Source: Candidatus Woesearchaeota archaeon
GTDB taxonomy: Archaea; Nanobdellota; Nanobdellia; Woesearchaeales; ARS49
Assembly (NCBI GenBank): GCA_003599055.1
Contig: QZIM01000013.1
Span: forward strand, 1 to 50,479
Length of the DNA: 50,479 nucleotides
Direction of reading: 5' to 3'
The notes below the pieces were generated by a model. The model ran no database searches. It saw nothing but the letters and a program-made list of their open reading frames with translations, and had not been told where the DNA came from. Positions 2,204 through 45,146 of the stretch are shown here, one piece after another (position 1 is the stretch's first letter; the number at the start of each line of letters is the position of its first letter). Made by a program: the position numbers and the translations under genes.

Positions 2204-2821
2204 ATGAGAATTGAAATAAACATTACCAAAAAACACGCAGCACTCTTTGCCGCGCTCACAACACTTCTTATTGCAACTATTATGGCCACGGCATTCGGCG
2301 GCAACAACCCTACGGTTCTTGGCCACAGCGGCGGAGAAATCGACGTTGCGGGCCTCTCCGGCAGCGCGCCATCCCTGAGCGTCGGCAGCGCAACAAACGC
2401 AAACTTTGCAACAACCGCAGGGTCTGCGACGACTGCCAACAGCGCGACCACGGCGAGTTCCGCCACCACTGCAAGCGCGTGCAATAACGATGCCCAATGT
2501 GAAATGTCCGCAGGATTCGTTCAGGGCGGAAGCGTAACGTTCACCAATAATCTTGCAGGCATCGCGTGGAGCAGCATCGCAAGCGGAACTCCCCTTATTA
2601 CGGCAAACGGCAACCTTGAAATCGGAACCTCTCCAGGCGGACCAGTGGTAAGCACACTCCTTCAGGCAGGAAATGTCATCGTCATTCGCGCACAAAGCGG
2701 CGGCGGAGCGAGCGGACGCGCACTCTGCAAAGGCGGCGGCGGAATTACCTCCGTTGGAGCCATCGGCGTGTGCTCAAGCGGCGTTGACGGCGCAGGCGGC
2801 TGCACGTGCAGCGCATCATAA
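2204..2821 (+). CDS. secreted/surface protein, AFGxxNPxVxGHS family (member 1)
   Basis: Product is 205 residues. Start MRIEINITKKH, then one hydrophobic segment (residues 11-30), then the family motif AFGGNNPTVLGHSGGEIDV (30-48) and GLSGSAPSL. Residues 60-95 are an Ala/Ser/Thr/Asn repeat of the type ATTANSATTASSATT, resembling the stalk repeats of phage and bacterial fibre proteins. The C-terminal part is Gly- and Cys-rich (ALCKGGGG, CTCSAS). One TM segment or uncleaved signal suggests an extracytoplasmic, membrane-tethered protein. Five relatives lie at 34.9-45.2 kb. Followed by the Cys-rich lipoprotein gene, a pairing seen twice. Function unknown. Confidence 0.75.
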   Translation: MRIEINITKKHAALFAALTTLLIATIMATAFGGNNPTVLGHSGGEIDVAGLSGSAPSLSVGSATNANFATTAGSATTANSATTASSATTASACNNDAQCEMSAGFVQGGSVTFTNNLAGIAWSSIASGTPLITANGNLEIGTSPGGPVVSTLLQAGNVIVIRAQSGGGASGRALCKGGGGITSVGAIGVCSSGVDGAGGCTCSAS

Positions 2822-2854
2822 CTGATATAAGCACCTTCTCAAATAAGAATCAGC

Positions 2855-3583
2855 ATGAGACACATATTACTCCTTATCCTTTGCGCCTGCGCCGTATGCC
2901 CGCCCGGAACCATCCCGGCAAACCAGACCTCAGGACCGGTCTGCATTTCCGACATTTCTTACTGCAACACGGATACTGACTGCGCAACGGCAAAATTCTC
3001 GTGTGAGCTGCCGTGCGAAAACCTGCCCGTGAACGTGAAAAACCTCGAGAAAGCCAAGGCAAAAGAACAACTCTGCAACCGCGAAAACGCATCGTGCAGG
3101 CTCAGCCCGGAAATCGTGCAAACGTGGTGCGAAGAACACCTGTGCAGGACGCGCACGCTGTATGCAGAAGACTTTGTCACAAGCCCAACACTCCTGCCCG
3201 TAACGAACGACTCCTTTGCCTGCTCCACACGTGACAACGGAAACGTAACCCTGCATTTCTTCATCCAAAACAACGCGCCCCTTGCACTTGAAACGCTCGA
3301 AGGACTCGTTGTTGGAGATACGCCAACCGGCTCAGAAGCTGCACCCTATGAGTTCGCCCTGCTTCCCCTTATCACCGCACCCATCCCAAAAAACGCGCAA
3401 CGGCAAATCAGCGTGTCAGTTCCTATCGCTCTTGGGAATCCGACCACGCTCACCCTCTACCCGTCCCAACACATTTTCTTCGGAAACATCGACGCAGGAA
3501 TTGTTACCCGACGAGTCGCGCCCACCCGCATTGAAAACATCACCCGCTGCACAACCTCACCATTTGCCAATCGAAGAGTTTAA
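2855..3583 (+). CDS. Cys-rich lipoprotein-like protein (paralogue 1)
   Basis: Product is 242 residues. Hydrophobic start MRHILLLILCACAVCPPG suggests a signal peptide ending in a lipobox-like Cys (residue 10 or 12). A Cys framework follows: VCISDISYCNTDTDCATAKF, SCELPC, QLCNRENASCRL, WCEEHLC. The spacing matches the gene at 37645-38349 although overall identity is modest, so the two are paralogues. The second half is beta-rich without Cys until near the end. Probably disulfide-bonded and exported. Lies 33 nt after a surface-family gene in the same direction; no clear Shine-Dalgarno. No function can be assigned. Confidence 0.72.
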   Translation: MRHILLLILCACAVCPPGTIPANQTSGPVCISDISYCNTDTDCATAKFSCELPCENLPVNVKNLEKAKAKEQLCNRENASCRLSPEIVQTWCEEHLCRTRTLYAEDFVTSPTLLPVTNDSFACSTRDNGNVTLHFFIQNNAPLALETLEGLVVGDTPTGSEAAPYEFALLPLITAPIPKNAQRQISVSVPIALGNPTTLTLYPSQHIFFGNIDAGIVTRRVAPTRIENITRCTTSPFANRRV

Positions 3584-3675
3584 ATACATCCGCACCCCAT
3601 TGTCGAGTGACGGCAACAATGTTGCCGACCTCGCGCGCTAACGCACGCGATAGAGAAATGCCAAAATTGGTGTGA
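3579..3675 (+). promoter_or_regulatory. sepF promoter and structured leader
   Basis: TATA TTTAAATAC (3579-3587) overlaps the stop codon of the preceding gene and predicts a start near 3610. The leader of about 78 nt has a perfect 7-bp hairpin, CGGCAAC-AAT-GTTGCCG (3611-3627), and a second imperfect GC-rich hairpin around 3631-3650. An 18-codon open frame beginning ATG TTG CCG (3619) ends at 3675, inside the Shine-Dalgarno region. Most first genes in this window lack any leader, so this one stands out. Confidence 0.5.
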
Positions 3676-3687
3676 GGTGTTGTGAAT

Positions 3688-4080
3688 ATGGGACTATTTT
3701 CCAGCATAAAAGACAAGTTTTCCACTCCGAAATACAGCGAGATGGAACAAGAAAGCGAATACGTTGAACTCGAACAGGACGGCGAAGTTGCGCGCAGCAA
3801 AGTCTTGGTGCGCCCGTTTATGCTTGACGCATTTGATGACGTAAAGCCCGTCCTTGACTCGCTTCGCGAAGGATACACTATTGCCCTTGTCAACATCCGG
3901 CCGCTCAAAGACAAAGACCTCGTCGAACTCAAGCGCGCAATCAACAAAATCAAGAAAACCGCCGAAGCAATCGACGGAGAAATCGCAGGATTCGGCGACG
4001 ACTTCCTTGTCGTCACACCCTCATTTGCAAGCATTTACCGCTCAAAGCAAATGAAGGCAGTCCAGCACGACGCGGAATAA
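3688..4080 (+). CDS. sepF: cell division protein SepF
   Basis: Product is 130 residues, the usual size for archaeal SepF. In archaea SepF anchors the FtsZ ring to the membrane. Residues 1-12 (MGLFSSIKDKFS) form the expected amphipathic membrane-targeting helix, then an acidic linker, then the SepF core (about 40-125): KVLVRPFMLDAFDDVKPVLD, ALVNIRPLKDKDLVELKRAI, and GEIAGFGDDFLVVTPS. ATG at 3688 is preferred over GTG at 3682 because GAGGTG sits eight nucleotides upstream. Ends one base before the convergent endonuclease V-like gene. No ftsZ in the window. Confidence 0.88.
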   Translation: MGLFSSIKDKFSTPKYSEMEQESEYVELEQDGEVARSKVLVRPFMLDAFDDVKPVLDSLREGYTIALVNIRPLKDKDLVELKRAINKIKKTAEAIDGEIAGFGDDFLVVTPSFASIYRSKQMKAVQHDAE

Positions 4081-4767
4081 CTACATTATTTCTTCAATTA
4101 CTTCTTCTTTTTGCTCAGGCACTTTGCCCAAGCGCAAGTCATCCGCTGCGCGCTTTGCCACGCGGTGTGCAACGTGAAGCATCTCGGGCAGTTTGTGCGG
4201 GTGAACAACGCAACGCTTCAAAATCTCAACAGATGTGCCAATTGAGAGCATATGGCCCGGAGAAACAAAGAGGTCGTTTGCGTGCTCTTTTGCGCGGAAC
4301 GTCCTTCCGCGCACCTCATCCTCAACAACAACATCCGCGCCTTCAACACGGCCATCAACAACGCTCTTGGCACAGCCAACCGTCGGCTTGCCAAGCTCAA
4401 CCCCCACAAATGTTGCAAGACCCGCCTTTTTGGGGTGCGCGATTCCGGGGCCCGAAACGACGAGAACGTCCGGCTCGTATTCAAGGTCATAATACAACTG
4501 GCAAATAAGCGGGCCGTCACGGAACGCCTGCAGGCCGGGAACGTAATTCATCACCTGCGGAAGCGCCTGCGTTTTTTTCTCAACGATTTTGAGCGTTTGG
4601 AACTCCATTACGACCGCAGAAACAATAGCCTGGCTTCCGATATAGGCAACGTCAAAACCGGCGACGTACTTTATGTTTTCAATTGAGATTCGGTCATCTG
4701 CAACGGCCTGCCTCTCCAGCTCATCCTGACGCTGGCTGATTTCGGAAAATTGTACGCTTGGCTTCAT
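4081..4767 (-). CDS. nfi: endonuclease V family protein with altered active site
   Basis: Product is 228 residues. The fold signature is clear: KYVAGFDVAYIGSQAIVSAV, YVPGLQAFRDGP, GIAHPKKAGLATFVGVEL, KPTVGCAKS, VSPGHMLSI, and KLPEMLHVAHR. Endonuclease V cuts DNA or RNA 3' to inosine using three metal-binding acids. The first Asp (FDVAY) is present, but the usual Glu in FRE is Asp here, and the usual Asp in DGHG is Ser (VVSGPGIAHP, about residue 108). The protein may therefore be inactive or use a different chemistry. TATA at 4808-4816, short leader with GGGTGGG near the ATG. Ends in an acidic EEVIEEIM tail. Confidence 0.82.
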   Translation of the reverse strand: MKPSVQFSEISQRQDELERQAVADDRISIENIKYVAGFDVAYIGSQAIVSAVVMEFQTLKIVEKKTQALPQVMNYVPGLQAFRDGPLICQLYYDLEYEPDVLVVSGPGIAHPKKAGLATFVGVELGKPTVGCAKSVVDGRVEGADVVVEDEVRGRTFRAKEHANDLFVSPGHMLSIGTSVEILKRCVVHPHKLPEMLHVAHRVAKRAADDLRLGKVPEQKEEVIEEIM

Positions 4768-4805
4768 TGAAACCCACCCTTTTCAGACAGGAATGTGGAG
4801 TTTTT

Positions 4806-4817
4806 AGTATATAAATG
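4806..4817 (-). promoter_or_regulatory. TATA box of the endonuclease V-like gene
   Basis: Minus strand reads CATTTATATACT, predicting a start near 4785 and a leader of about 18 nt. The 158-nt divergent region also holds the promoter of the plus-strand gene at 4926. Confidence 0.5.
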
Positions 4818-4892
4818 TTTCTAAATTCATCATCTTAGAGTGGTTAAAATAAATGTGTCAAAATGACCTAAATGATGCAAAAAAGTCATATA

Positions 4893-4900
4893 ATTTATAA
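4893..4900 (+). promoter_or_regulatory. TATA box of the gene at 4926
   Basis: ATTTATAA centred about 29 nt before the GTG at 4926, which implies a leaderless or nearly leaderless message. Confidence 0.5.
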
Positions 4901-4925
4901 AGAACCGTTGCGCACTTTGCACTGA

Positions 4926-5402
4926 GTGAAGATGAGCTTAGCAGACCGATTGCACCTTTGCGCAAAACAGTGCCCGACCCTTGCCCCTGAAGTTCAGGAA
5001 AGCGACCTTGCACTGCTTGACGCAATCCTTGCCGAACAAGAACCGACAGAAAACCCGTACATCGCGCCAAAAAATGAACACACGCCCAGCCGCAAAGAAA
5101 CGGCAAAACGCAGCGCGCGCTACGCACTCCAGCAATTCTACCACCACCCGCGCGCGTACGGCCGCGAAGAGCGGGAGACGCTTATCCACGACGCCTGCAC
5201 CCTTCTGACCATCGCTGACGCACACGAAGAACACGCACGCGTCACCTACCTTGTTGACGCCCTCTACGCGCTTGCCGTCGAGCGCGACATACGCGCATTT
5301 GACCTGCGCACACAGGAAATAGGGCTCGCTTCTGCAACAAAAGAGCAATACGGAAACGCCCTACCTGAAGTCCAGAATTATATGCTCGACAAATTCCGCT
5401 AG
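4926..5402 (+). CDS. hypothetical protein
   Basis: Product is 158 residues, hydrophilic and mostly helical by eye, with no membrane segment. Not recognised. It has two Cys near the N-terminus (LCAKQCP) and a long helix-forming centre (ARYALQQFYHHP, VTYLVDALYALAVERDI). Either GTG at 4926 or ATG two codons later could start it; neither has a Shine-Dalgarno, which suits a leaderless message from the TATA at 4893-4900. Its stop overlaps the stop of the convergent 49-residue gene by four bases. Codon use resembles neighbours, so it is probably a real gene. Confidence 0.65.
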   Translation: MKMSLADRLHLCAKQCPTLAPEVQESDLALLDAILAEQEPTENPYIAPKNEHTPSRKETAKRSARYALQQFYHHPRAYGREERETLIHDACTLLTIADAHEEHARVTYLVDALYALAVERDIRAFDLRTQEIGLASATKEQYGNALPEVQNYMLDKFR

Positions 5403-5548
5403 CGAAGCAACTTCTTGATACGCTGCTCAACCGCAGCCTCGCGCAGCCGGATTTGCTCCTCAAGATGTTTCACAATGATTTGCGCGTCAAGCAACTTTAA
5501 GTCAAGAAAATCATCCGCGATGAGAAATTCAGGCTTCACCTGTTTCAT
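5399..5548 (-). CDS. 49-residue protein coupled to the ZPR1-type gene
   Basis: Product is 49 residues, beginning MKQVKPEFLIADDFLDLK and continuing as a charged amphipathic helix (AQIIVKHLEEQIRLREAAVE, then QRIKKLLR). Its ATG overlaps the TGA of the ZPR1-type gene as ATGA, the standard sign of translational coupling in this genome. The Leu/Ile spacing would allow a short coiled coil. It is likely to act with or be dosed with the ZPR1-type protein; function unknown. Convergent four-base overlap with the gene at 4926-5402. Confidence 0.68.
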   Translation of the reverse strand: MKQVKPEFLIADDFLDLKLLDAQIIVKHLEEQIRLREAAVEQRIKKLLR

Positions 5549-6090
5549 AGTTTAGACCTCACTGCTTTATCCGACACGATGGCACTGTTGCCCGTCGCAT
5601 CCTCAATAATAATCTTAAGCTTCTCAGAACCCCACAACACGTTCTGCAGCTTCTTGAGCAAATTCTTTGCCTTCTTCCTATCCTCGTCATCTTCCGCAGA
5701 ATCACGCAAAAGCTCAACTTGCTTCTTAAAACGCATAATCAGCCCTTCAATGTTTGTCACAAACCCTTCCGCGTTCACGCCCGGCTCAAGAGAGCCCACG
5801 TGCGGAATCTTCACAAAACCCTCAGAAGAACGAATAACACGCACATTCAAGTCATCCTTGCCCGACACCTCAAATGTGTACTTGCACGGCTCACGCTGCT
5901 CGGCCGCCTCAACATCAGACTTGTGATACTTGCAGTTTGAACAGTGCATCCCAAAGACAAACACCTTGCCAAAAAAAGGCACTTCGGATACCCCTTCTGT
6001 CAGCGTCAGGTTCTTCGTTCTGCACATCGGACAGAGCTGCCCTGCAAGCGACTCAGACTGCAATTCCTTAACCTCTGCTTCTTTTGCCAT
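5545..6090 (-). CDS. ZPR1 zinc-finger domain protein
   Basis: Product is 181 residues, the archaeal single-domain form of ZPR1. The zinc finger is LCPMCRTKNLTLTE (about residues 19-32) paired with GMHCSNCKYHKSDVE (48-62), followed by the family's beta-rich core ending NSAIVSDKAVRSKL. Eukaryotic ZPR1 binds elongation factor 1A and acts as its folding chaperone; a similar role in archaea is plausible but unproven. TATA CTTTTTAAGC (6114-6124) centred about 27 nt before ATG implies a leaderless message. Operon with the 49-residue gene. Confidence 0.85.
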   Translation of the reverse strand: MAKEAEVKELQSESLAGQLCPMCRTKNLTLTEGVSEVPFFGKVFVFGMHCSNCKYHKSDVEAAEQREPCKYTFEVSGKDDLNVRVIRSSEGFVKIPHVGSLEPGVNAEGFVTNIEGLIMRFKKQVELLRDSAEDDEDRKKAKNLLKKLQNVLWGSEKLKIIIEDATGNSAIVSDKAVRSKL

Positions 6091-6113
6091 TCACCGCCAA
6101 AAATAGAGGAACT

Positions 6114-6124
6114 GCTTAAAAAGC
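6114..6124 (-). promoter_or_regulatory. TATA box of the ZPR1-type gene
   Basis: GCTTTTTAAGC on the minus strand, about 27 nt before the start codon. It stands back to back with the plus-strand TATA at 6157-6165. Confidence 0.55.
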
Positions 6125-6156
6125 TTGTGGGCAGAATACCAGTCCAGTGAATAAAT

Positions 6157-6165
6157 GCTTAAATG
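6157..6165 (+). promoter_or_regulatory. TATA box of the Rad50-like gene
   Basis: GCTTAAATG centred about 27 nt before the ATG at 6188; the message should be leaderless. Confidence 0.55.
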
Positions 6166-6187
6166 AAAGCAGACACCCCCAAAAACC

Positions 6188-8230: not shown

Positions 8231-8964
8231 TTCCTGCTCCTTACTTTTGTGAGCAGCCGCAACACTTCCAAGTACAGCCAGACTAATGTGACCAAAAGAC
8301 CGAACGCCGCATACCACTCCATATATTTCGGCGCCCCGTGCTTTACCCCTGCCTCAATAAAGTCAAAATCAAGCACCAAATTAAGCGACGCGACAACGAC
8401 CACAAACACGCTAAACAAAATGCCAACCGTCCCCGACTCGTGAATGAGCGGAACGGCAACCCCGAAAAAAGACGCAACCAATGAGATAAGATAGACAAAC
8501 AGAATGCCGAGCGTTGCCGCAAAAACCCCAAGCCTGAAATTCTCGGTTGCCTCAACCCAGCGCGACTTGTACGCAAAGAGCAGGCCAAAGAGAACGCCGA
8601 CCGTAATCAGCACTGCCTGAAGGACAATGCCCGAATACACCGCCTCAAAAACCGCAGAAATCGTACCCAAAACCCACCCCTCAAGCACTGCATAGAGCGG
8701 AGCCAGATACATCGAATACTCCCGCTTAAAGACCGTCACCAGTGCAACAATAAAGCCAAGAATCGCGCCGCCGAAAACACCCACTGCGGCAATTTCCGGA
8801 AAGACCAAAAAAAGCTGCCAGGCAAACCCGCCCACCAGCATAACGAGGAGGAGAAGCATTCCGGTCTTATTCACCGTCCCATCAAGCGTCATCCGATGAG
8901 AATCATACACGTGCGTGAACGTCCGGAACACGCGCTCAGACAGGGCAGGATTTGCCGTTCTCAT
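8227..8964 (-). CDS. Bax inhibitor-1/YccA family membrane protein
   Basis: Product is 245 residues starting MRTANPALSERVFRTFTH, a start also typical of bacterial YccA-type homologues. About seven hydrophobic segments follow, including KTGMLLLLVMLVGGFAW and AVLITVGVLFGLLFAY, with a conserved Asp-containing segment (NLVLDFDFIEAG) near the C-terminus. BI-1 proteins are channel-like membrane proteins, some releasing calcium in a pH-dependent way. The open frame continues far upstream (to about 9606) but that is antisense to DUF456. ATG at 8964 fits the TATA at 8986-8995 (26-27 nt upstream); an alternative ATG at 9009 would add 15 residues. Confidence 0.82.
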   Translation of the reverse strand: MRTANPALSERVFRTFTHVYDSHRMTLDGTVNKTGMLLLLVMLVGGFAWQLFLVFPEIAAVGVFGGAILGFIVALVTVFKREYSMYLAPLYAVLEGWVLGTISAVFEAVYSGIVLQAVLITVGVLFGLLFAYKSRWVEATENFRLGVFAATLGILFVYLISLVASFFGVAVPLIHESGTVGILFSVFVVVVASLNLVLDFDFIEAGVKHGAPKYMEWYAAFGLLVTLVWLYLEVLRLLTKVRSRN

Positions 8965-8985
8965 ACTCCCCGAGAAAGCCGCCCT

Positions 8986-8995
8986 GCTTAAAAAC
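8986..8995 (-). promoter_or_regulatory. TATA box of the BI-1 gene
   Basis: Minus strand GTTTTTAAGC, centred 26-27 nt from the ATG at 8964. This placement is the main reason for rejecting the longer reading frame. Confidence 0.5.
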
Positions 8996-9039
8996 GTATC
9001 CCTCTCCATTAAAATAGGTGCTGCACCATACCTTCCCTT

Positions 9040-34962: not shown

Positions 34963-35466
34963 ATGGATGTTCGCATTAACGTTGAGAAAAAACACCTGTA
35001 CGGGTTTGCCGCATTCACCCTTCTTCTTGCAAGCGCGCTCCTCACTGTTGCATTCGGAACAGATAACCCTGCAGTCTTTGGTCACAGCGCACTTGAACTC
35101 ATTGTGAACTCATCAAGCATTGTTGACGGGAGCATCCAGGGAGCCGATATCGGCACCAACGCAATCGGCGCCGCACAAATCGACAGCACATCCCTTGCCA
35201 GCGAATGCACCAGCATCACCGGAGGGGCGGGGCTTTGCGACGGAAGCGATGCGGATTCAATCGGAATATCAAGCTGTTCACGATTCAGCGGAAGCCCAAG
35301 CGCAAGCTGCGGCGGAAGCGAGCGCCTCACCGGCGGAGGGTGCAGTTGCCCGGGCGGCGCAGTCGTTTCCCAAACATTCAGCACCCCTGCAGGAAACCTT
35401 GGCGGCGGACTTACCTGCACGTGCACGGCAGGAGCCGCAACCGCAGACGTTATGTGCTGCTCCTAA
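34963..35466 (+). CDS. secreted/surface protein, AFGxxNPAVxGHS family (member 2)
   Basis: Product is 167 residues. Start MDVRINVEKKHLYGFAAF, one TM segment to about residue 28, then AFGTDNPAVFGHSALELIV, the shortest and least conserved version of the motif (SALE for SGGE). The Cys-rich C-terminal half (CSRFSGSPSASCGGSERL, GGGCSCPGG, LTCTCTAGAATADVMCCS) has the spacing of exported beta-domains with paired disulfides. ATG at 34963 is used by analogy with siblings and because TATA TTTATAAAT (34926-34933) predicts a start near 34956. Convergent with nfo, four-base overlap. Confidence 0.7.
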   Translation: MDVRINVEKKHLYGFAAFTLLLASALLTVAFGTDNPAVFGHSALELIVNSSSIVDGSIQGADIGTNAIGAAQIDSTSLASECTSITGGAGLCDGSDADSIGISSCSRFSGSPSASCGGSERLTGGGCSCPGGAVVSQTFSTPAGNLGGGLTCTCTAGAATADVMCCS

Positions 35467-36327: not shown

Positions 36328-36912
36328 TCAACACGCAGCGGCGCTTACCCTGTTGAGCCGCTCAATACGCCCGCTACTGCAGGTGAGAATCAAGTCAAAC
36401 GGACCCGGCGCAACACACCCATCGCACGTCCCGTCCGCACAGCTGTCTTTTGAGCAAACATTTCCACCCGGAATATCCAGACAAATATCCGCATTTGAAC
36501 TTGAGCCCACGTTTTGACAAAGCGCGGCAAATGTCGCAAAAGTCACTGTACCCAGCGAAGACTCATCAATCTCGGTCCCGCCAATACAATTCGTGCAGGA
36601 CAAGTCATTTGCCGTCGGCCAATTAAACGAGCCCTCCGCAATCTGGCCCGAACCCAAACAGTCAGTACACGAAACACCCGACGCGCTTCCCGCAGTCGTC
36701 GCAAAATTCGCATTCGTCGCGGCGCCCGCAGTAAGACTTGGCGCGCTTCCCGAAAGCCCCGCAACATCAATCTCGCCCCCGCTATGCCCAAACACCGCAG
36801 GATTATTCGTCCCAAACGCATTTGCAAACAGCACAAGAGAAAACAAAACCAGCGCCCCTGAAAAAAGAAACGCGTGATGCCGCTTAACCGTTATTTCAAT
36901 CTTCATATTCAT
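36328..36912 (-). CDS. secreted/surface protein, AFGxxNPAVxGHS family (member 3)
   Basis: Product is 194 residues. MNMKIEITVKRHHAFLFSGA, TM segment to about residue 32, then AFGTNNPAVFGHSGGEIDV, GLSGSAPSLTAGAATNANFA: almost identical to member 1 over this block. Then cysteine pairs (SCTDCLGSG, SCTNCIGGTEID, NVCSKDSCADGTCDGC) and a final VSAAAC. GGAG precedes three close ATGs (36915, 36912, 36906); the start is uncertain by two codons. Downstream of member 4 by 18 nt, so co-transcribed. Confidence 0.72.
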   Translation of the reverse strand: MNMKIEITVKRHHAFLFSGALVLFSLVLFANAFGTNNPAVFGHSGGEIDVAGLSGSAPSLTAGAATNANFATTAGSASGVSCTDCLGSGQIAEGSFNWPTANDLSCTNCIGGTEIDESSLGTVTFATFAALCQNVGSSSNADICLDIPGGNVCSKDSCADGTCDGCVAPGPFDLILTCSSGRIERLNRVSAAAC

Positions 36913-36930: not shown

Positions 36931-37608
36931 TCACGGAATCCTAAAACCAGTATCCGCGGAATTTCCGATACCCGCACACGTACTTGCCGCATCAATCGTC
37001 AGGATACCCGAGCCCGCACCTCCAACATTACACCGCCGGACAACCGTTGCACCACTGCTTGCCGCAATCGTACTTGTTGCAGTGATCGTACTTGAAACCG
37101 CAAGCGCAGCGAAAACATCCACTCCGCCCCCTCCTTCCCGAATGCGCATCGAATTTATCCCGCCCGTTGCATCCCTAAAAATTAAGTTTCCGTTGTTAAT
37201 TGAATTATCAACACGAATGCTGAACTGCCTGCCTGCATTTGTCAGAAGAATCTCGCGCGACAAACCACCACCCGCACTGCCAAGAGATAAGTCGTCACTG
37301 TTTATCGCAATTGAAGAACTGTCCGAATTTTGCAGTCCATCCACATCAATTGTCCCGCAGTTCTGGTCATCACACTGCGTATTCGTATCCGTATCAGCGT
37401 CTGCTGCGCACACAAGTGCACCCGCACCGTCAACCGTCAACTTCTGCGTGCCCGGACAGGTTGTTCCCTGAAGCTCCCCTACCGTATGGCCGAGCACTGC
37501 AGGATTCGTTCCGCCAAATGCGATAACCAAAACACTGCCCAAGGTAAGAACAGCAACTAAAAGAAAGACCAGCATATGCCTCTTTTCAATCCTTATCTGA
37601 ACAGCCAT
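36931..37608 (-). CDS. secreted/surface protein, AFGxxNPAVxGHT family (member 4)
   Basis: Product is 225 residues. MAVQIRIEKRHMLVFLLVAV, one TM segment to about residue 28, motif AFGGTNPAVLGHTVGELQG, then a thrombospondin-type-3-like acidic patch ALVCAADADTDTNTQCDDQN that could bind calcium, and a beta-rich, Gly/Ser/Thr-rich fibre-like second half (FRDATGGINSMRIREGGGG, STITATSTIAASSGATV). GAGG before ATG. Its TATA GCTTAAATAGG overlaps the stop codon of the lipoprotein gene upstream. Confidence 0.7.
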   Translation of the reverse strand: MAVQIRIEKRHMLVFLLVAVLTLGSVLVIAFGGTNPAVLGHTVGELQGTTCPGTQKLTVDGAGALVCAADADTDTNTQCDDQNCGTIDVDGLQNSDSSSIAINSDDLSLGSAGGGLSREILLTNAGRQFSIRVDNSINNGNLIFRDATGGINSMRIREGGGGVDVFAALAVSSTITATSTIAASSGATVVRRCNVGGAGSGILTIDAASTCAGIGNSADTGFRIP

Positions 37609-37644: not shown

Positions 37645-38349
37645 TTAAGCATTTCCAACAGAATTCCCGCATTCCGTCACGTTCAGATGCGCAACCGTGT
37701 CTGCATTGCGTACCCCCAGCGTTATACCCTTTGCAGCAACCGGGCGAACGGCAAACAAATACACCTCCCGAGGCGTTGCATTGATTATTTTTTGCTCTAC
37801 CCTGCGCGACTCGTTTGGGCGTATTGACTCATTGAGCAGATTTGCCGAAACCATCACTGAAGAACCATTTTTCAACGACACGTTAAAAAGGGCCTCTACC
37901 TGATTCAAATTCAGCGACGCAGCATTCAACACGTGAAGCCGCACAAGCGCGTCACCCCCAGACACCGCATAACACGCCTGCTTCCCTTCCTCAACCTCCT
38001 CAAATACCGGCAACGGAACCAACTCATCCGCAGTATGCGGAATTGCCACACACTGACTCTTTGCACACACGTGTTCAACATACGGAACCTGCTTACACCG
38101 AATCCCCTCACGATTACAACGCGCAGCAGCATCCTTTGCGTCAAGCGCAAACAAAGAATTTACCGCAACAGGAACACACGGCCTTGCGCAATCAAACTGC
38201 GCAGACGTACACTGCTCATCTTGCGTACAATATGACGCGGCACCGACACACGCAGGAACCCCCTCAACTCTTGCCGCAACATACCCTTCCGGACAACGAA
38301 CACCGGAGCAGGCAACCAGCAGTAAAAACGCCAAAAAAACGAGCCTCAT
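37645..38349 (-). CDS. Cys-rich lipoprotein (paralogue 2)
   Basis: Product is 234 residues. Signal MRLVFLAFLLLVACSG with lipobox-like VAC, Cys at residue 14, suggesting lipid anchoring. The Cys framework matches the gene at 2855: RCPEGYVAARVEGVPACVGA, ASYCTQDEQCTSAQFDCARP, CVPVAVNSLFALD, AARCNREGIRCKQVPYVEHV and CAKSQCVAIPHTADE. The C-terminal half has several N-glycosylation sequons (FNVSLKNGSS, LLNESI, INATPRE). ATG at 38349 is leaderless by TATA TTTTAAG (38373-38379). Followed by surface-family members, as paralogue 1 is preceded by one. Confidence 0.72.
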   Translation of the reverse strand: MRLVFLAFLLLVACSGVRCPEGYVAARVEGVPACVGAASYCTQDEQCTSAQFDCARPCVPVAVNSLFALDAKDAAARCNREGIRCKQVPYVEHVCAKSQCVAIPHTADELVPLPVFEEVEEGKQACYAVSGGDALVRLHVLNAASLNLNQVEALFNVSLKNGSSVMVSANLLNESIRPNESRRVEQKIINATPREVYLFAVRPVAAKGITLGVRNADTVAHLNVTECGNSVGNA

Positions 38350-38560
38350 ACCGCACCAACACAACGCCCGCACTTAAAATGATTTCTCAATTAACACAAA
38401 GCCCGGCATCACTCTTCTCCCAACCGCGTTCCAAAAAACAAGCCGGATTGTTCCGCCAAACGTGCTCACCCGAAAAAACGACAAATGCAAAAAAAACATT
38501 GCATAAAACAGCAGCACTGCGTGCTTCTTCCCGGTGTGAATACACGCCCATACGCCCTTC
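38350..38560. other. 211-nt spacer
   Basis: Holds the lipoprotein gene's TATA box and a minus-strand 54-codon frame (38387-38551, starting MGVYSHREEARSAAVLC) with a GAAGGG near its ATG. Composition and codons do not look gene-like, so I do not call it. Confidence 0.4.
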
Positions 38561-41500
38561 TCACCGTTCTTTTTTCCGCTTTCTTTTACTATTTTCCAAA
38601 CTGCCAATTTCGCTCTGCCAGCGACGGTCGAATTCCCTAAGAACGCGCTCAGATTCGCTGAGCACCCTTTCCGTTGAGCTTCGCCGCGGATAGAACGAAA
38701 CCGCAAGCAACGCCGCTACTGCAGCCAACATAATCAATCCAACCCTGCCATAGGCAAACACCCTCTTCGGCAGTTCTTCTAACACAACGATTCCGCCTTC
38801 TGAATTTTCCTCCTGGCTCAACTCTGCACCCGACGGCACAGCATCAGATACTGCCTTGCCCTGCTCAGTTATTCGAACAGGCTTATCCGCAAACGGAACC
38901 TGAACCCCTGCTTGGTGCAACTTGACTACGCGAAGCACTGCCCTGCGCTGGTACACATACAGCACATCAACCGCAAGGTCATCCCTCCCGTCATCATCAA
39001 GGTCAAAACGAGCCCCCTCGCGAGCCAAAATCATCGCCTCCTTTGGCGCACTTGCAACACGCACAAGCACCCGGTCCGCCAAAACACTCACCACCGTGAC
39101 AGAATGCTCAGCGCCCGCAAAGTCAAAAACAACCCGCTCATTATTCGTCATCGGAGAAGTCACCAGAACCTCAGAAGACATCACCTGATCGCGAATGACT
39201 GCCCGCCCCGGACCTGCGCCTCCTCCGCCCCCGCCCCCTGAAACGGCCGGTGATGCACCGATGGATGAGAGCACAACCGGACACGCAATCGTTTGGCTCC
39301 CCGAAATAACAACCCCTGATGAACACACCCCGTTCACAACCGTCGCATTCACTACCTGCAACCCGCCAACCGATGAATTGATTACCGAACTATTTACCAC
39401 CGAACCCGAACCCACCGACGAATTCTGCATCGACGAATTCGCAACAGTGCCCCCCGCCACTGAGCCATTAGTCACATTCGAATCAGCAACCGTTCCGCCC
39501 GACAGTATTGAATCAGCGACTGACGCATTTTGAACCGTGCCGTTCACCGAACTGTTCGTCACCGACGAATTTATCACCGTGCCATCAACCGTGCTGTTCA
39601 CCACCGTACTGTTCCTCACCAACCCCGCCGCGGTTGAATCTTCCAAAGAGCTGTTCGTCACGTTTGCATTTCCCACCGAACTGTTCGTCACCGAAGAATT
39701 CACCACTTCGCTCCCGCTCAAACTCCCGTTAACCACGGACGAATCCGTGACATTTGAACCCGCCACAGTCCCGTTTGTTACCGAACTGTTTGTCACGTTT
39801 GATTCAGACAAGCTTACATTCACAACCGAGCCGTTATCCACTGCCGAATTCAGGCACGAACCGCCAAGCTCAACACCGTTTACAACCGTACAATTCGTGT
39901 TTGTTGCGCCCGTTACCGTACTGTTCATAATAGTGCTATTCACCTTCGTCGAGTTCACAATACTTGAGCCTGACGCATTCACACCCTCAAGAGAACTGTT
40001 CTCAACATACGAGCCGGACAAAACCGAATCCGCGCAGGACGCATTGAGCTCAACCGAACTCATAACCGAACAATTCACGTTGATTGAGCCATTCACCGTT
40101 GAGCTGATTATTGTGCTGTTCGTTTTTGACGAATTACTGATGTTTGAACCCGAAACAAACGAGCCCGGCAATGACGACCCGAAGACCGCGCTCGTCACCG
40201 TCGTGTTCTCCGACACGTTCAGAACGAAAGACGAGCCCGTGCCGTTTTGGAACGCCAAACTTGCATTATTCACAAGAACCGACCCGTTATTGAGCGCCCC
40301 CGCAACCTGCACCGTGATATTGATTACAACCACCTGAGACTGGTTAATGTCGCCGAGTGACCACGTGTTGTTTGTCCCATTGTCCGGCGCAGGAGACGCG
40401 TTCAGGAAAAGCACACTCTCAGAATACGCCTCAACCACCGTACTGTTAAACGCTGTCCCGTCCGTCACGTTCACCGTAAGCGCATACGTCAGGTTTGCCT
40501 CGGCAGCAACAGGGTCAGAAGAATCAGATTTTGCAAATGAAGCGTTCGTTCCCTGCTCAATTGATGAATACGACGTAAAGGAGGACACGTTAAAGACAAA
40601 CACCCCTCCCGCAAAGCTTATTTCCACACACTTCGGAACATCACAGTTTGCAAAAACACCATCATCATCAACATCAACCGTCGGACGAGGATTGCCAAAA
40701 ACAATACCGCGCAGCGTCACCTGCGCCGAATCATTCAGGAAAGAAACCGCAGAACTGTTGAGAAACGCACGGTTCAGGGAAACATTCAGAACAGACTTAT
40801 TCACCGCCGCACCTGCAGGGACGGAAACTCCCGGAACAACCTGAATCGAGCCATTACCATCCCAAAAGAGCGTTTGGTTCACCGCGTTCACGCCAACCGT
40901 CACTCCGGAAGAAAGGTAGGTAAAGTTTGAAACGAGCACCGTCTGATAGAGCACATTACCCGCGCTCAGCGTAAGCAATTCGAGCGCAGCAGCAGTATCT
41001 GAAATGAACGTGTTGTTCACCAAAACATTACTGAATGCGGAAACAAACGCAACACCCTGACCGGACACACCCTCCGCCGAAACATTCTGCACCACCGACT
41101 CATTTGCATCACTTAACAATAACGCGCCCCCTCCTGATGAAAACACCATACTGTCCTTTACAAAAGAACCAATCGCCCCCGCAAGCGCAAGACCCGTATC
41201 AGTGAAACTCCAAACAACCGCATCCTGCACAGAGACGTTCTGCGCTCCTGACACCTGTAATCCCGGACTTGCGTTTCCGGTAAGCGAAACATTCGCCACG
41301 GACACATTCAGTGAATTCCCATCAATACGCAAACCGCCAAGCTCCGAAAACGAAGAAACATTCCGTACAAGAGAATGATTCACAGCGGCAAACCATACGC
41401 CATATGAGTCACTAACAGAGGCATTCACCTGACTGAACACACAATTCCTCACGGAAACATTTGCCGCCTGCGTTGCGTTCACCCCTGCACCCGCAAACTG

Positions 41501-42658
41501 ATTTGCATACGAGACCGTAAAGCCCGCACAATCAAGGTCAACTCCCGACGAGACAAAAAGAGCAGTTGCAGGACAAGATACATTACCCGCAAGAATCGTA
41601 TCTTCACTAATAACCGCTCCGCACTCGGGAATCAGCATCGCGCCGCTACCCGTCACATTATCAATACGAAACTCGCCGCCATCAACACGAACGGTGATTC
41701 CGCCGATTACCTGCGGGAACGTTCCTGTGAAGTTCACACTGTTCGTACACGACCCGTTCACTTCCTCAAGACGTGTTGCATTGGGACACACACGAACACC
41801 CAACGCTGCAAGCGCAGTCCTGTTCAGGAACAGAGTATGATTGAGCTGAGCGCCCAACACCCCTGACACATTCACCGCAACCGCAGTCTCGTTAAACTCA
41901 ACACGCAACTCAGATGCATTCACCGTCTCTTGATTGAACAAACCGACAAACGCAACATGCCTGCGGTTATCCGTCGAATTCACATACGTAATCACCTGCG
42001 TCACATACGAAGGCTCAGTCACATTTGCCAGCGTCCCGTTCACCGACCCATTCGCCACGAGCAAAAATGCCTGCCCTGCATTCGGCTGCACGTACACCGT
42101 CGAGAGCCCCGCAACGGAACAGCACACCGTAATATTGTACCTGCCTGAAGATACACAATCGGAGATATGCCCATTCGTCAGATTTGCAACCGTGTACACG
42201 CACGTCTCAGACGAAAGACACGAACCCTCTCCTGTTTCGTTCACCCTGCACGCAATCGAGTTATTTGACGCGGAAAGATACGCAGAGAAATTGTACGCTG
42301 AAAGCGAAGGCACTTCCGCGTGCGCATTTGTGGTGTTAAAAAGCCGCATAAAGACCGTTCCCGTTGAATTCGTCCCAATCGTGTTGTTCCCGCTCGTATC
42401 CCCGCAGCACACGCTCACCGGATAATTTGACTCATTTGCGAGCTCCATATGCGCATTTGTCATATTCGTTGCGCCGAGCACTTTCGTGTACCCGCCCGGG
42501 CAAGCACCATCCACGAAAGAACAATCAAGATTCCCATTCGGAAGAACGACCAATGCACCCGTGAGCGACGGGCCAAAACGGAACGCGAACACCGCCGCAA
42601 AGAGAACAACAGCCAACGCAAGAACAACCCACTCAACCCTTCGAACTACCAGTTCCAT
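38561..42658 (-). CDS. giant membrane-anchored surface protein with beta-helix and sequon-rich pentapeptide-like solenoid
   Basis: Product is 1365 residues. Order: TM anchor (about 10-30, VEWVVLALAVVLFAAVFAF); Cys repeats of the form NAHxE...VSVCC (about 45-180); linker; right-handed beta-helix (about 340-650, e.g. ANVSVRNCVFSQVNASVSDS); a beta-domain with VVVINITVQVAGALNNGS; a five-residue repeat solenoid (about 825-1125, e.g. SSVTNSSVGNANVTNSSLED) with about three dozen NxS/T sequons; Gly linker near 1140; a domain with DLDDDGRDDLAVDVLY (calcium-like loop); second TM (about 1305-1325) and a basic cytoplasmic tail ending KRKRKKER. TATA at 42692-42702, GAGG six nucleotides before ATG. Likely a glycosylated stalk. 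Function unknown. Confidence 0.82.
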   Translation of the reverse strand: MELVVRRVEWVVLALAVVLFAAVFAFRFGPSLTGALVVLPNGNLDCSFVDGACPGGYTKVLGATNMTNAHMELANESNYPVSVCCGDTSGNNTIGTNSTGTVFMRLFNTTNAHAEVPSLSAYNFSAYLSASNNSIACRVNETGEGSCLSSETCVYTVANLTNGHISDCVSSGRYNITVCCSVAGLSTVYVQPNAGQAFLLVANGSVNGTLANVTEPSYVTQVITYVNSTDNRRHVAFVGLFNQETVNASELRVEFNETAVAVNVSGVLGAQLNHTLFLNRTALAALGVRVCPNATRLEEVNGSCTNSVNFTGTFPQVIGGITVRVDGGEFRIDNVTGSGAMLIPECGAVISEDTILAGNVSCPATALFVSSGVDLDCAGFTVSYANQFAGAGVNATQAANVSVRNCVFSQVNASVSDSYGVWFAAVNHSLVRNVSSFSELGGLRIDGNSLNVSVANVSLTGNASPGLQVSGAQNVSVQDAVVWSFTDTGLALAGAIGSFVKDSMVFSSGGGALLLSDANESVVQNVSAEGVSGQGVAFVSAFSNVLVNNTFISDTAAALELLTLSAGNVLYQTVLVSNFTYLSSGVTVGVNAVNQTLFWDGNGSIQVVPGVSVPAGAAVNKSVLNVSLNRAFLNSSAVSFLNDSAQVTLRGIVFGNPRPTVDVDDDGVFANCDVPKCVEISFAGGVFVFNVSSFTSYSSIEQGTNASFAKSDSSDPVAAEANLTYALTVNVTDGTAFNSTVVEAYSESVLFLNASPAPDNGTNNTWSLGDINQSQVVVINITVQVAGALNNGSVLVNNASLAFQNGTGSSFVLNVSENTTVTSAVFGSSLPGSFVSGSNISNSSKTNSTIISSTVNGSINVNCSVMSSVELNASCADSVLSGSYVENSSLEGVNASGSSIVNSTKVNSTIMNSTVTGATNTNCTVVNGVELGGSCLNSAVDNGSVVNVSLSESNVTNSSVTNGTVAGSNVTDSSVVNGSLSGSEVVNSSVTNSSVGNANVTNSSLEDSTAAGLVRNSTVVNSTVDGTVINSSVTNSSVNGTVQNASVADSILSGGTVADSNVTNGSVAGGTVANSSMQNSSVGSGSVVNSSVINSSVGGLQVVNATVVNGVCSSGVVISGSQTIACPVVLSSIGASPAVSGGGGGGGAGPGRAVIRDQVMSSEVLVTSPMTNNERVVFDFAGAEHSVTVVSVLADRVLVRVASAPKEAMILAREGARFDLDDDGRDDLAVDVLYVYQRRAVLRVVKLHQAGVQVPFADKPVRITEQGKAVSDAVPSGAELSQEENSEGGIVVLEELPKRVFAYGRVGLIMLAAVAALLAVSFYPRRSSTERVLSESERVLREFDRRWQSEIGSLENSKRKRKKER

Positions 42659-42739
42659 TCAGCGCCTCTTTACCGGAAGAAAAAGCCAAGAAACGTATTT
42701 AAATGTATCGAGGGAGACAAACACGCACCCCCTCAACAA

Positions 42740-43666
42740 TCACCGCAGCACCGCCTGAATCACGCCAGTCTCTTCTCCCGAAGAACACACTGTCTTTGCG
42801 CGGGCAACCACTGCATCACCCCCTGCCTCCCGCCCGGAAAGAGGACGCAAACGGCCGTCGCTTGCAGTCACAAGACGGTCCCCAAATTCAAGCGGCGACC
42901 CATCAGAGCGGAAACAGCGCACTTTTGTAAACTCGTGAACACCCTCAAGCGCAACCGGGAACCAGCCTTCACAACCCGCGTGCCGCCAGTCCTGCGCGTT
43001 ACCGCCAAGCATCAGCTTATTATTCCCCGTGCCGCAGCCCAAATTCAAAATCTGTTCTGCGTGCGTGGTTGCAATACCCACGACTGCAAGCGAAGAATCT
43101 TCCCCGCACCGCTCAAATGCTCCTGACACTGCCGAAATGCAAACGGCGTCTCCCTCTTCCACGCCGCTCACCTGCATCATCTCCGCAAGCGTTGAACAGC
43201 CCGTACAGCTTGAAACCGTAATCGAGCCCATATTGAGCGTCACGCCGTTAAAGCTCACGGAATACAGCGTGCTTCCCCCTGATATACGCTCAAACTGCAG
43301 GGTAGGGTCGCCGCTTCCCGTAATCCGCAAAAAGGTCCCTGAAGAACCCGTATTCCCTATGAAAGAACTGCTTGTCGTCTGCAACGACACCACGTCGCAC
43401 GAAGAATCACCATTACACGCATTTGCCGTCGATGCAGTTGAAGCAGTTGAAGCTGATGATGCACTTGACGCGGACGTCGCAAACCCAACACTCAGGCCAG
43501 GCGCACTCCCTGCGAGCGCCGCAACATCAATCTCGCCGCCGCTGTGCCCAAAAACCGCAGGATTAGCCGTCCCGAAGGCAGTGACAAGAATCGCAGCGAA
43601 CATACCAACAAGTAGCACCAGCAGCACAAAAAAACGGGACTTGGTAATTCTGACTTTGAACTCCAT
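42740..43666 (-). CDS. secreted/surface protein, AFGxxNPAVxGHS family (member 5), fibre-like
   Basis: Product is 308 residues. MEFKVRITKSRFFVLLVLLV, TM to about residue 29, motif AFGTANPAVFGHSGGEIDVA, ALAGSAPGLSVGF, then a Ser/Ala/Thr repeat (SASSASSASTASTASTAN). The second half, from STLAEMMQVSGVEEGDAVCI to AVVGIATTHAEQILNLG and FGDRLVTASDGRLRPL, resembles a domain common near the C-terminus of bacterial and phage fibre-type proteins (LAE...GDVV...VIGV). TATA near 43695-43703. Next gene upstream is member 6, with its own promoter. Confidence 0.72.
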   Translation of the reverse strand: MEFKVRITKSRFFVLLVLLVGMFAAILVTAFGTANPAVFGHSGGEIDVAALAGSAPGLSVGFATSASSASSASTASTASTANACNGDSSCDVVSLQTTSSSFIGNTGSSGTFLRITGSGDPTLQFERISGGSTLYSVSFNGVTLNMGSITVSSCTGCSTLAEMMQVSGVEEGDAVCISAVSGAFERCGEDSSLAVVGIATTHAEQILNLGCGTGNNKLMLGGNAQDWRHAGCEGWFPVALEGVHEFTKVRCFRSDGSPLEFGDRLVTASDGRLRPLSGREAGGDAVVARAKTVCSSGEETGVIQAVLR

Positions 43667-43790
43667 CTTTTTTTAAAGAAGTGAGCAAGAGCAAATATAA
43701 AAATCATTCCATACCCAAACGAAAACAGAAGTCCCGTCTTCCCCCGCAAAGACTATCCCGAACCTATTCTGCCAAGAAAACACCGCACGC

Positions 43791-45146
43791 TCATACATTA
43801 TTGCTTACGGAACAGCCGCCCGCAGTAAGCGTTCCCGTCACGCGGTTGCCCGTAAACGCGCAGGTCGAAGCGCCCGTCCCGTCCAGATTGCCCGAAATGA
43901 AGTTGCCCGAAACCAGATTACCTGACGTGGACGTCACATCCACACCGCCGCTTGTCACAATGTTGCCGCTGATGGCAACATCATTCCCGTTATTCTGTAT
44001 CCCATTCGTCACGTAATTGCCCGCGATTGTGTTGCTGCCGCCGTTTGTTGTTATCCCGATTGCCGGAGAATTTGATACCACAAAATTTCCCGAGATAACA
44101 TTGTTCCCGTTATTGCCGATAATACCCTCCCCATCAATGCCTCCCCCTCCGCTGCGAATATGATTGCCCGTGACCGTTGCAAACCCCTCCGCCCGAATTG
44201 CCGCGTGCGAACCGCCCGCGAGCGACCAGGCAAGAACAGTATTGCCCACTATCACTGCATTCTGGCCGGATGCAAGGATGCCCTCATCCCCTCCAAGCTG
44301 AACCAAATTCGCCTCCGCAATGCTGCGATCGCCCGAGAGGCTTATTGCAGGGCCTGTCGCAGTCTCAACATAGTTGCCTTTCACAATACCCTCACTCATC
44401 GATATACCCGTATCCGCCGCGCGCACCTGATTATCCGTCACCTGCGCCTCGTTCGCCTGAATACCTGTGCTTGCATTCCCCTCTATCACGTTCGATGCTA
44501 CCGTAAGTTCAGCTGCCCCCGCCGGGTTGAAACTTGATGCAAACGCGAGAATTCCTCTCGTCGCAACATTAGTCACAATCCTGTTTCGGCGAATGACCAT
44601 TGTCCGCGGCTGAACCGGCGTTGTCCCAAGATTATTTACCGAAACAGACGTTCCCTGAACTCCCTGAATGTCAATACCCTCAATGAGCCCGGAAACGTTT
44701 GTAAACACAATTCCATCAAGACCTGTTGCGGAACCCGCACGAATCGCAAAATCCTGCAAACGAACATTCTCAACAACCGTTGTTCCGCCAGCTTGGTCAG
44801 TAATCACATCAATACCGTTTGCCGTTGCCTGCAAAATCGTGCCTGAACCCTGCCCAATGATAGAGATATTACTTGTTACGTTAATAGGACCCGCAATCGT
44901 GTACGTTCCGGGGCCGAGCAGGACTGTCCCTCCGCCCTGCGCGGCAAGCTCATCAATTGCCTGCTGAATCTCCTGCTCAGTTCCAACGTCAACCACGATA
45001 ACAGGACCAACCCCTGCAACCTCCCCCCTGCTGTGCCCCACAAGCGCAGGATTACTCCCGCCAAAGGCAATCACCAGCGGAGCTAAGAGAACAAGCGCGG
45101 CAAGTCCCAATTTTGCAACTCTATGCGGACCTCTTTTCACGAGCAT
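43791..45146 (-). CDS. secreted right-handed beta-helix protein, GHS family (member 6)
   Basis: Product is 451 residues. MLVKRGPHRVAKLGLAALVL, TM to about residue 25, motif AFGGSNPALVGHSRGEVAG, then a pectate-lyase-like parallel beta-helix: TEQEIQQAIDELAAQGGGTV, LLGPGTYTIAGPINVTSNIS, then many coils with N-G-N/D turns (VIEGNASTGIQANEAQVTDN, NGNNVISGNFVVSNSPAIG). Such helices bind or cut polysaccharides; catalytic residues were not identified. TATA GTTTATATAGG (45161-45171). The only member with a long enzyme-like module after the motif. Confidence 0.76.
   Translation of the reverse strand: MLVKRGPHRVAKLGLAALVLLAPLVIAFGGSNPALVGHSRGEVAGVGPVIVVDVGTEQEIQQAIDELAAQGGGTVLLGPGTYTIAGPINVTSNISIIGQGSGTILQATANGIDVITDQAGGTTVVENVRLQDFAIRAGSATGLDGIVFTNVSGLIEGIDIQGVQGTSVSVNNLGTTPVQPRTMVIRRNRIVTNVATRGILAFASSFNPAGAAELTVASNVIEGNASTGIQANEAQVTDNQVRAADTGISMSEGIVKGNYVETATGPAISLSGDRSIAEANLVQLGGDEGILASGQNAVIVGNTVLAWSLAGGSHAAIRAEGFATVTGNHIRSGGGGIDGEGIIGNNGNNVISGNFVVSNSPAIGITTNGGSNTIAGNYVTNGIQNNGNDVAISGNIVTSGGVDVTSTSGNLVSGNFISGNLDGTGASTCAFTGNRVTGTLTAGGCSVSNNV

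What the first reader, a model, noticed from the sequence alone, without database searches (positions are those of the whole stretch)
2204..45146. Six-member secreted family with a fixed post-TM motif and exchangeable C-termini
Proteins at 2204, 34963, 36328, 36931, 42740 and 43791 share: short start of the M-x-V/I-x-I type, a Lys/Arg-rich pair with His, one hydrophobic segment, then AFGxxNPAVxGHSxGE. What follows differs completely: fibre-like Ala/Ser/Thr repeats, Cys-rich tails, a bacterial fibre-type domain, a pectate-lyase-like helix. A constant address next to a variable cargo suggests a sorting, anchoring or assembly signal, such as a processing site or a handle for a shared surface scaffold. 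I know similar NPAVxGHS strings only from uncharacterised DPANN proteins.
Basis: partly seen in the sequence, partly recalled or inferred. Interest (0 to 1): 0.82.

Follow-up and report, generated by a model that had tools for sequence, protein, structure and literature searches.

The report
Shared export address, interchangeable surface tips
Tiny archaea of the Woesearchaeota group carry a family of exported proteins that share one unusual N-terminal address but end in unrelated, sometimes phage-fibre-like tips, and the genes often sit next to a second undescribed surface protein, so they may be how these cells display exchangeable adhesins.

Summary
The six window proteins, and two elsewhere in this Woesearchaeota-type genome, share a constant N-terminus: an amphipathic strand MxIxINIxKKHxY, one hydrophobic segment, a signal-peptidase-I-type site, then (N)P..GHSxxE(I/L). 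Its profile hits 84 of 371 genomes of the phylum, own included. In 139 proteins from 101 loci the His is kept in all 122 that align there. C-termini fall into 82 groups; the recognised minority includes phage-fibre, tail-spike, S74-chaperone and one collagen-IV-NC1 module. The 20-residue motif alone finds only these N-termini at E<1e-6 in 22 genomes. A sortase is not supported (0 of 30 carriers). A candidate partner appeared: a secreted protein with, typically, three "C..LS..NAH..Y..CC" repeats. It is immediately beside a family gene in 24 of 29 cases (9.4 expected) and co-occurs by genome (36/58 versus 64/287 after removing the genomes that seeded its model), though many copies stand alone. 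Best reading: an extended signal peptide plus a mature docking segment for exchangeable, probably trimeric, surface fibres. Function is inferred; both structure predictions failed.

The parts
2204..2821 (+). Family member 1 (205 aa): address, then Ala/Ser/Thr-rich stretch and Gly/Cys-rich tail; C-terminus related to a protein of genome G009
   Evidence: C-terminal group with L141 8133-8777
34963..35466 (+). Family member 2 (167 aa), Cys-rich tail
36328..36906 (-). Family member 3 (192 aa); residues ~32-75 nearly those of member 1, then unrelated Cys-rich tail
36931..37608 (-). Family member 4 (225 aa)
42740..43666 (-). Family member 5 (308 aa), Ala/Ser/Thr repeat then C-terminal domain of no database match
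43791..45146 (-). Family member 6 (451 aa), right-handed beta-helix / tail-spike type C-terminus
36874..36906 (-). Example of the extended n-region (residues 1-11, MKIEITVKRHH) in member 3; same place in the others except member 6
36817..36873 (-). Hydrophobic segment and predicted signal peptidase I site (cut after residue 30, A|FG) in member 3
   Evidence: -3/-1 composition over the family; archaeal signal peptidase I in own genome
36769..36828 (-). Motif block of member 3 (FANAFGTNNPAVFGHSGGEI)
2282..2341 (+). Motif block of member 1
35041..35100 (+). Motif block of member 2
37471..37530 (-). Motif block of member 4
43529..43588 (-). Motif block of member 5
45018..45077 (-). Motif block of member 6
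38561..42658 (-). Candidate partner: 1365-aa secreted protein, N-terminal hydrophobic segment, three NAH repeats, beta-helix, C-terminal hydrophobic segment; begins 81 bp after the end of member 5
42404..42505 (-). NAH repeat 1
42287..42364 (-). NAH repeat 2
42116..42223 (-). NAH repeat 3
38687..38743 (-). C-terminal hydrophobic (likely transmembrane) segment of the partner
   Evidence: hydropathy

Best explanation
The constant N-terminus is a two-part address of a family of Sec-exported surface proteins of DPANN archaea (the phylum that holds the Woesearchaeota). Part one is a signal peptide with an extended, conserved, strand-like cytoplasmic region (MxIxINIxKKHxY), removed by signal peptidase I after the -3/-1 V-x-A site. 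Part two is the new mature N-terminus, [FYQ]G..NP..GHSxxE(I/L), with a His kept wherever it aligns. The variable C-termini are short Cys-rich tips or, in a minority, phage-fibre, tail-spike and other modules, several of which are trimeric in known structures. Proposed mechanism: the extended n-region slows or steers export so that three chains can assemble; the mature GH segment starts the trimer and docks it to a surface partner; and the C-terminal tip recognises an external ligand, plausibly a host or neighbour cell. In many genomes the partner would be the adjacent NAH-repeat protein. Shown by sequence: the address, its position, the cleavage-site pattern, the C-terminal exchange, and the gene pairing. 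Inferred: cleavage, trimer state, docking, ligand binding.
For: One N-terminal family: 84 of 371 phylum genomes (own included) at E<=1e-3. 139 proteins at E<1e-4 in 101 loci from 60 genomes. -3 V80% A12%, -1 A88% G8%; of 139 rows, 122 align at the Gly-His pair with Gly 97% and His 100%; Glu 82% of 109; -3/-1 rule met in 134 of 137. Archaeal signal peptidase I in the own genome. Median n-region 12 residues versus 7 in 109 other secreted proteins of the same loci; alternating strand in 48 of 64 members found by the mature motif alone versus 6 of 109 controls. No second hydrophobic segment over the threshold in 139. C-termini: 82 groups among 135; same-genome pairs share 48% N-terminal identity, yet only 31 of 170 show C-terminal similarity. 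Pfam matches among 139: S74 chaperone 4, NosD 2, pectate-lyase-like 2, collagen IV NC1 1, tail collar 1, gp10_C 1 and three others; up to 15 members match one tail-fibre PHROG. Partner: 24 of 29 NAH genes immediately next to a member, 9.4 expected, maximum 18 in 5000 permutations; 28 of 29 on the same strand as the nearest member; genome co-occurrence 36/58 versus 64/287 without the 26 genomes that seeded the NAH model (odds ratio 5.7, p=7e-9), 62/84 versus 64/287 with them.
Against: No structure: both AlphaFold jobs failed (pLDDT 41 and 38), so trimerisation and docking are unmodelled. At most 14 of 139 members have any Pfam match at E<=1e-3, so the trimer inference rests on a minority. 17 of 139 rows do not align at the Gly-His pair; several of these show a His in another setting. 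22 of 84 carrier genomes have no NAH hit, and 64 of 287 non-carriers have one. Two of the three NAH proteins of the own genome are not beside a family gene. Of 21 NAH genes in 20 further loci, two had a neighbour with fibre-type repeats and three more only a loose His-motif match. Family genes on own contigs C11 and C13 have no NAH neighbour in the fetched stretch, the C13 gene lying at a contig end. The co-occurrence test is not corrected for phylogeny; the permutation uses approximate gene calls. Part of the n-region conservation is circular, because members were found with a profile that includes it.
Confidence: 0.5

Rival explanations
1. The hydrophobic segment is not cut: the family are membrane-anchored surface proteins, and the n-region and GH segment flank a permanent, possibly trimeric, membrane anchor.
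For: Conservation on both sides of the segment, its length of about 17-19 residues and the absence of any other membrane anchor in 139 proteins.
Against: 88% Ala at -1 with V/A at -3 (134 of 137 obey the rule) is the signal peptidase pattern and has no obvious reason in an anchor; the genome has a type I signal peptidase.
Confidence: 0.22
2. The GH segment is only the first folding element (N-cap) of a trimeric fibre and docks to nothing; the shared N-terminus reflects common ancestry and C-terminal swapping, and the neighbourhood with NAH proteins is a general clustering of surface genes.
For: S74 fibres with ordinary short signal peptides in non-carrier genomes also show a His motif just after the cut (L182, L189: VVGHDA; L179: TQSHPANQV). 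NAH genes often lie elsewhere.
Against: The n-region would not need to be conserved; the segment is kept before beta-helices, short Cys-rich tips and GIGT fibres alike; the pairing exceeds a within-locus permutation.
Confidence: 0.21
3. The genes are tail-fibre genes of integrated viruses of these archaea.
For: Tail-fibre and tail-spike PHROG matches in the C-termini.
Against: No confirmed relative in viral contigs in one scan with the pattern AFG[GT]xNP[ATL]V and no match of member 5 or of the member-3 address in 50,697 phage records; window neighbours scanned include housekeeping genes (RNA polymerase, ribonucleotide reductase, Fe-S assembly); they carry signal peptides, which phage fibres lack (general knowledge).
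Confidence: 0.04
4. Type IV pilin-like (class III signal peptide) proteins cut before the hydrophobic segment and assembled as filaments.
For: Short basic leader followed by a hydrophobic segment.
Against: The PibD-type cleavage pattern (recalled) is present in only 3 of 139; conservation peaks at an A-x-A-like site after the segment.
Confidence: 0.02
5. GHSxGE is a catalytic nucleophile elbow, as in acyltransferases.
For: The profile's best PDB matches are stretches of polyketide synthase acyltransferase-containing chains (E=0.026), which carry GHSxGE (recalled).
Against: The Ser is only 52% conserved while the His is kept in all aligned rows; the stretch sits ~11 residues after the predicted cut with unrelated sequence behind it.
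Confidence: 0.01

Closest known systems
Extended signal peptide region (ESPR) of type V autotransporters, including trimeric adhesins (passages of PMC8151025 seen)
   Same: Conserved N-terminal extension in front of an otherwise ordinary signal peptide, on large surface proteins with variable passengers; [quoted passage not shown]
   Different: Sequence, length (about 11 rather than 25 residues), domain of life; no outer-membrane translocator; the constant address here continues into the mature protein; no Pfam ESPR match
YSIRK/GXXS signal peptides of Gram-positive surface proteins (abstract of PMC5962339 seen)
   Same: Conserved motif in the signal peptide that gives special trafficking to a set of otherwise different surface proteins
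   Different: Different motif and place; those proteins are, by general knowledge, sortase substrates; no sortase found in 30 carriers here
Phage tail fibres and tail spikes with S74 intramolecular chaperone
   Same: Constant N-terminal attachment part, exchangeable receptor-binding C-terminus, some of the same C-terminal modules
   Different: Cellular genes with signal peptides, no virion context seen, no relatives in phage records
Trimeric autotransporter SadA with its helper lipoprotein SadB (passage)
   Same: Fibre plus a membrane-associated helper
   Different: The NAH protein is, as far as seen, unrelated and larger, and its role is inferred only from gene position

Membership tests
Sec signal peptide / signal peptidase I substrate | Small residues at -3 and -1 after a hydrophobic segment | tested here: met
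   134 of 137; -1 A88/G8, -3 V80/A12
Sec signal peptide / signal peptidase I substrate | Enzyme present | tested here: met
   TIGR02228 over its cut-off in the own genome, partial match 35-119 of 158
Sec signal peptide / signal peptidase I substrate | Cleavage of the protein itself | not testable with these tools
   Needs N-terminal sequencing or proteomics
ESPR (type V secretion) | Match to the ESPR family | tested here: not met
   Not among the 9 Pfam families matched at E<=1e-3 by any of 139 members
YSIRK/GXXS surface proteins | YSIRK family match and sortase | tested here: not met
   No such Pfam match; sortase in 0 of 30 carrier genomes
Archaeosortase / exosortase substrates | C-terminal TM sorting signal and enzyme in the genome | tested here: not met
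   No second hydrophobic segment in 139; enzyme family not found in own genome nor in 26 of 30 carriers
Class III (type IV pilin-like) signal | Charged-charged-G/A cleavage pattern before the hydrophobic segment | tested here: not met
   3 of 139
Phage tail fibre | Fibre-type C-terminal modules | tested here: met
   A subset of members only
Phage tail fibre | Virion gene context or viral relatives | tested here: not met
   within their limits (one pattern scan; two queries)
Homotrimeric fibre | Three chains per particle | not testable with these tools
   Only single-chain prediction offered; both models poor
Surface adhesin | Binding to a cell or surface | not testable with these tools
   Inference from domain content

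The most novel reading that the evidence does not exclude
DPANN archaea own a dedicated two-component display system for exchangeable recognition fibres: a homotrimeric fibre, exported through a private extended signal peptide, docks by its mature GHSxxEI N-terminus onto the three NAH repeats of a surface protein (one repeat per chain), and swapping of fibre C-termini retunes which host or neighbour cell is recognised.
Probability: 0.2. Interest if true: 0.88.

Novelty: new variant of a known kind. Interest (0 to 1): 0.67.

Why it matters
How DPANN cells recognise and hold their hosts is open; a 2024 study of a Nanobdellota attachment organelle states that its proteins are unknown (passage of PMC11420986). 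This family gives a list of candidate recognition proteins in 84 of 371 sampled genomes, a candidate anchor beside many of them, and a short motif with a strongly kept His that can be mutated. It would also be, to my knowledge, the first conserved extended signal-peptide class described in archaea; that rests on the listings of ten paper searches, in which I saw no description of it, over an open-access library that lacks most subscription journals.

Tried and rejected
Sortase and archaeosortase as processing enzymes: not supported in 30 carriers and 30 non-carriers. Class III pilin signal: rejected. Acyltransferase elbow: chance resemblance. Viral origin: no support. Structure prediction of the NAH domain and of member 5: pLDDT 41.1 and 38.4, not used and not sent to a fold search. 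A third gene type (pilin-like 'KSQITVFMIIGI' proteins) near the loci: a 9-genome cluster, but my pattern found only 4, one of them 67 bp from a member; not pursued. PDB search for 42740 and 43791: nothing. NAH profile in PDB: nothing. Pfam on 10 NAH-protein ORFs: no curated match over the repeats. Distribution outside this phylum could not be tested: the single genome-contig scan used one strict pattern and returned only two places, both in one Woesearchaeota genome.

Rows dropped before counts: the 139 members are the ORFs with E<1e-4 among the 150 domain rows. Exactly 100 hit regions were fetched (five calls of 20), from the hits, mostly the strongest; several weaker listed hits (E about 1e-6 and above) were left out and the table itself was cut. 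C-terminal grouping used the 135 members with more than 30 residues left; the pair comparison used members over 110 residues. The L143 member (genome G010) has the motif but only a short n-region, and the L140 member is cut at a contig end. The NAH model was seeded from the same family-centred loci, which favours co-occurrence; hence the count without the 26 seed genomes.
Full report
Observation. The window is contig C10 of a 1.15-Mb genome with housekeeping genes; the only named relatives found are in a Woesearchaeota genome. Two more members lie on other contigs of the genome (C11, C13), one of them ending in a Peptidase_S74 chaperone (E=8.3e-9) and one in a beta-helix grouped with that of 43791.

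Extent. Own genome included, profiles of the N-terminus hit 5 of 37 close genomes, 37 of 279 genomes of the phylum with a 15-row profile and 84 of 371 with a 36-row profile. Distribution is patchy: of 21 other genomes of the same GTDB family only 3 were hit, and the one other species of the genus (G001) was not. I fetched 100 regions; with the window this gives 101 loci from 60 genomes, each with at least one of 139 members at E<1e-4.

Anatomy. Over the family the order is: start; residues 3, 5 and 7 hydrophobic (about 96% I/L/V/F/M each; all three in 122 of 125) alternating with polar ones, Asn 64% at 6; Lys or Asn at 9, Lys/Arg at 10; His 46% at 11; hydrophobic segment; -3 V80/A12, -1 A88/G8; then Y/F/Q, Gly 58%, Pro 89%, Gly 97%, His in all 122 aligned rows of 139, Glu 82%, Ile/Leu/Val (percentages of aligned rows). 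The 17 rows that do not align at Gly-His include ones with the His in another setting, such as SFHDILY or VVSHKLS. The -3/-1 rule holds in 134 of 137; the His lies 6-18 residues (median 11) after the predicted cut in 121 measured. To reduce circularity I split the profile: the mature half alone (E<0.1) found 72 ORFs in the loci, all of them family members; of 64 with a Met start, 48 have the alternating strand, against 6 of 109 other secreted proteins in the same loci, and their median n-region is 12 versus 7 residues. Genome-wide in 22 genomes the 20-column mature motif found 16 places at E<1e-6, all at these N-termini.

Cargo. 135 C-termini fall into 82 BLAST groups, the largest of 29; none of 139 has a second hydrophobic segment over the threshold. 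Pfam matches are few: S74 chaperone (4), NosD (2), pectate-lyase-like (2), and one each of collagen IV NC1, apextrin C-terminal, tail collar, temptin C, gp10_C and bactofilin; tail-fibre PHROGs match up to 15 members. From general knowledge S74, NC1, collar and gp10_C are trimeric modules, which is the ground for the trimer inference. 88 of 139 have a Cys in the last six residues, and 49 of 139 lie in tandem clusters. Exchange is visible: same-genome pairs share 48% of the N-terminus (32% across genomes) but only 31 of 170 have similar C-termini; of 75 pairs over 60% identical at the N-terminus, 50 show no C-terminal hit, one of them (L122/L123) at 97%. In the window, members 1 and 3 agree almost completely from the motif to residue ~75 and then diverge; at DNA level the similarity between members is confined to about codons 26-73.

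Partner. A clustering of neighbouring ORFs showed recurring large secreted proteins with repeats of the form C..LS..xNAH..Y..CC. Of 29 such ORFs, 20 have three repeats, 7 two, one six and one a single repeat; Pfam showed no curated family over the repeats in the 10 scanned and the PDB none; 11 have a later hydrophobic segment, 9 of these near the C-terminus, in 8 preceded by P-F/V-F/Y. Of the 29, one per locus in 29 of 101 loci, 24 are the immediate neighbour of a family gene against 9.4 expected when the other genes of each locus are permuted, maximum 18 in 5000 (approximate gene calls); 23 lie within about 100 bp, several overlapping, and 28 are on the same strand as the nearest member. By genome, 62 of 84 carriers have the repeat against 64 of 287 non-carriers; because the repeat model came from these loci I removed its 26 seed genomes, which leaves 36 of 58 against 64 of 287 (odds ratio 5.7, p=7e-9). 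Neither is corrected for relatedness. Against a strict partnership: 22 carriers lack it; in the own genome two of three NAH proteins stand apart from family genes; and of 21 NAH genes in 20 further loci (15 loci of non-carriers), two had a neighbour with fibre-type repeats (G097, G093) and three more only a loose His-motif match. For a wider link: S74 fibres of the non-carriers G093 (two loci, ordinary short signal peptides) and G114 (start not in view) also sit beside NAH genes.

Processing. Sortase: 1 of 60 genomes, a non-carrier. Exosortase family: 4 of 30 carriers (one below the cut-off), 7 of 30 non-carriers. Archaeal signal peptidase I: present in the own genome. No dedicated processing enzyme co-occurs among those tested.

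Mechanism. The most economical reading is a signal peptide of the ESPR/YSIRK kind in function, though not by membership, followed by a mature docking or trimer-start segment, on exchangeable fibres. The steps shown are the address, its place, the cleavage pattern, the swapping and the gene pairing. Cleavage itself, trimer state, docking on NAH repeats and recognition of a host are inferences; the three-repeats-to-three-chains match is a conjecture.

Known context. Conserved signal-peptide extensions on surface proteins are known in bacteria (passages of PMC8151025; abstract of PMC5962339). I saw no description of this family in the listings of ten paper searches. Cryo-tomography of DPANN pairs has seen attachment organelles of unknown protein content (passages of PMC11420986) and, on the host cell, antennae with a bulb-like tip likened to tail fibres (passage of PMC11329633). 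Passages of PMC8144416 on hypermutation were also looked at and were not used.

Noticed in passing
L093 4042-5214 (-), genome G218 contig C14: A family member ends in a tandem collagen type IV NC1 domain (Pfam C4 1.4e-53; PDB 1m3d, E=7e-34), an animal basement-membrane trimerisation domain, in an archaeal locus with other family genes.
   Followed up: partly
window 38561-42658; L065, L128, L072 and others: NAH-repeat proteins are a broad, apparently undescribed class of DPANN surface proteins: 126 of 371 genomes have a hit, 57 of those exactly three repeat matches.
   Followed up: partly
L065 5880-7562, L084, L128, L072, L096, L087, L070, L059: C-terminal hydrophobic segment with a P-F/V-F/Y motif just before it and a mostly basic tail in 8 of 29 NAH proteins; might be a sorting or membrane-anchor signal.
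   Followed up: no
L063 2615-3874, L066 2576-3805, L125 5248-6555; also L166, L176: Proteins starting K-S/G-Q-I/L-T-V/A-F-M-I/L-I-G followed by a hydrophobic stretch lie near NAH and family genes; possibly a pilin-like third component.
   Followed up: no
window 37645-38373 (-): Cys-rich secreted protein with a lipoprotein-like start (LLLVACSG) inside the same surface-gene cluster; no Pfam match.
   Followed up: no
G000:C1:32662-32979 (L196): A second signal-peptidase-like frame in the own genome, below the family cut-off, is interrupted by one TGA.
   Followed up: no
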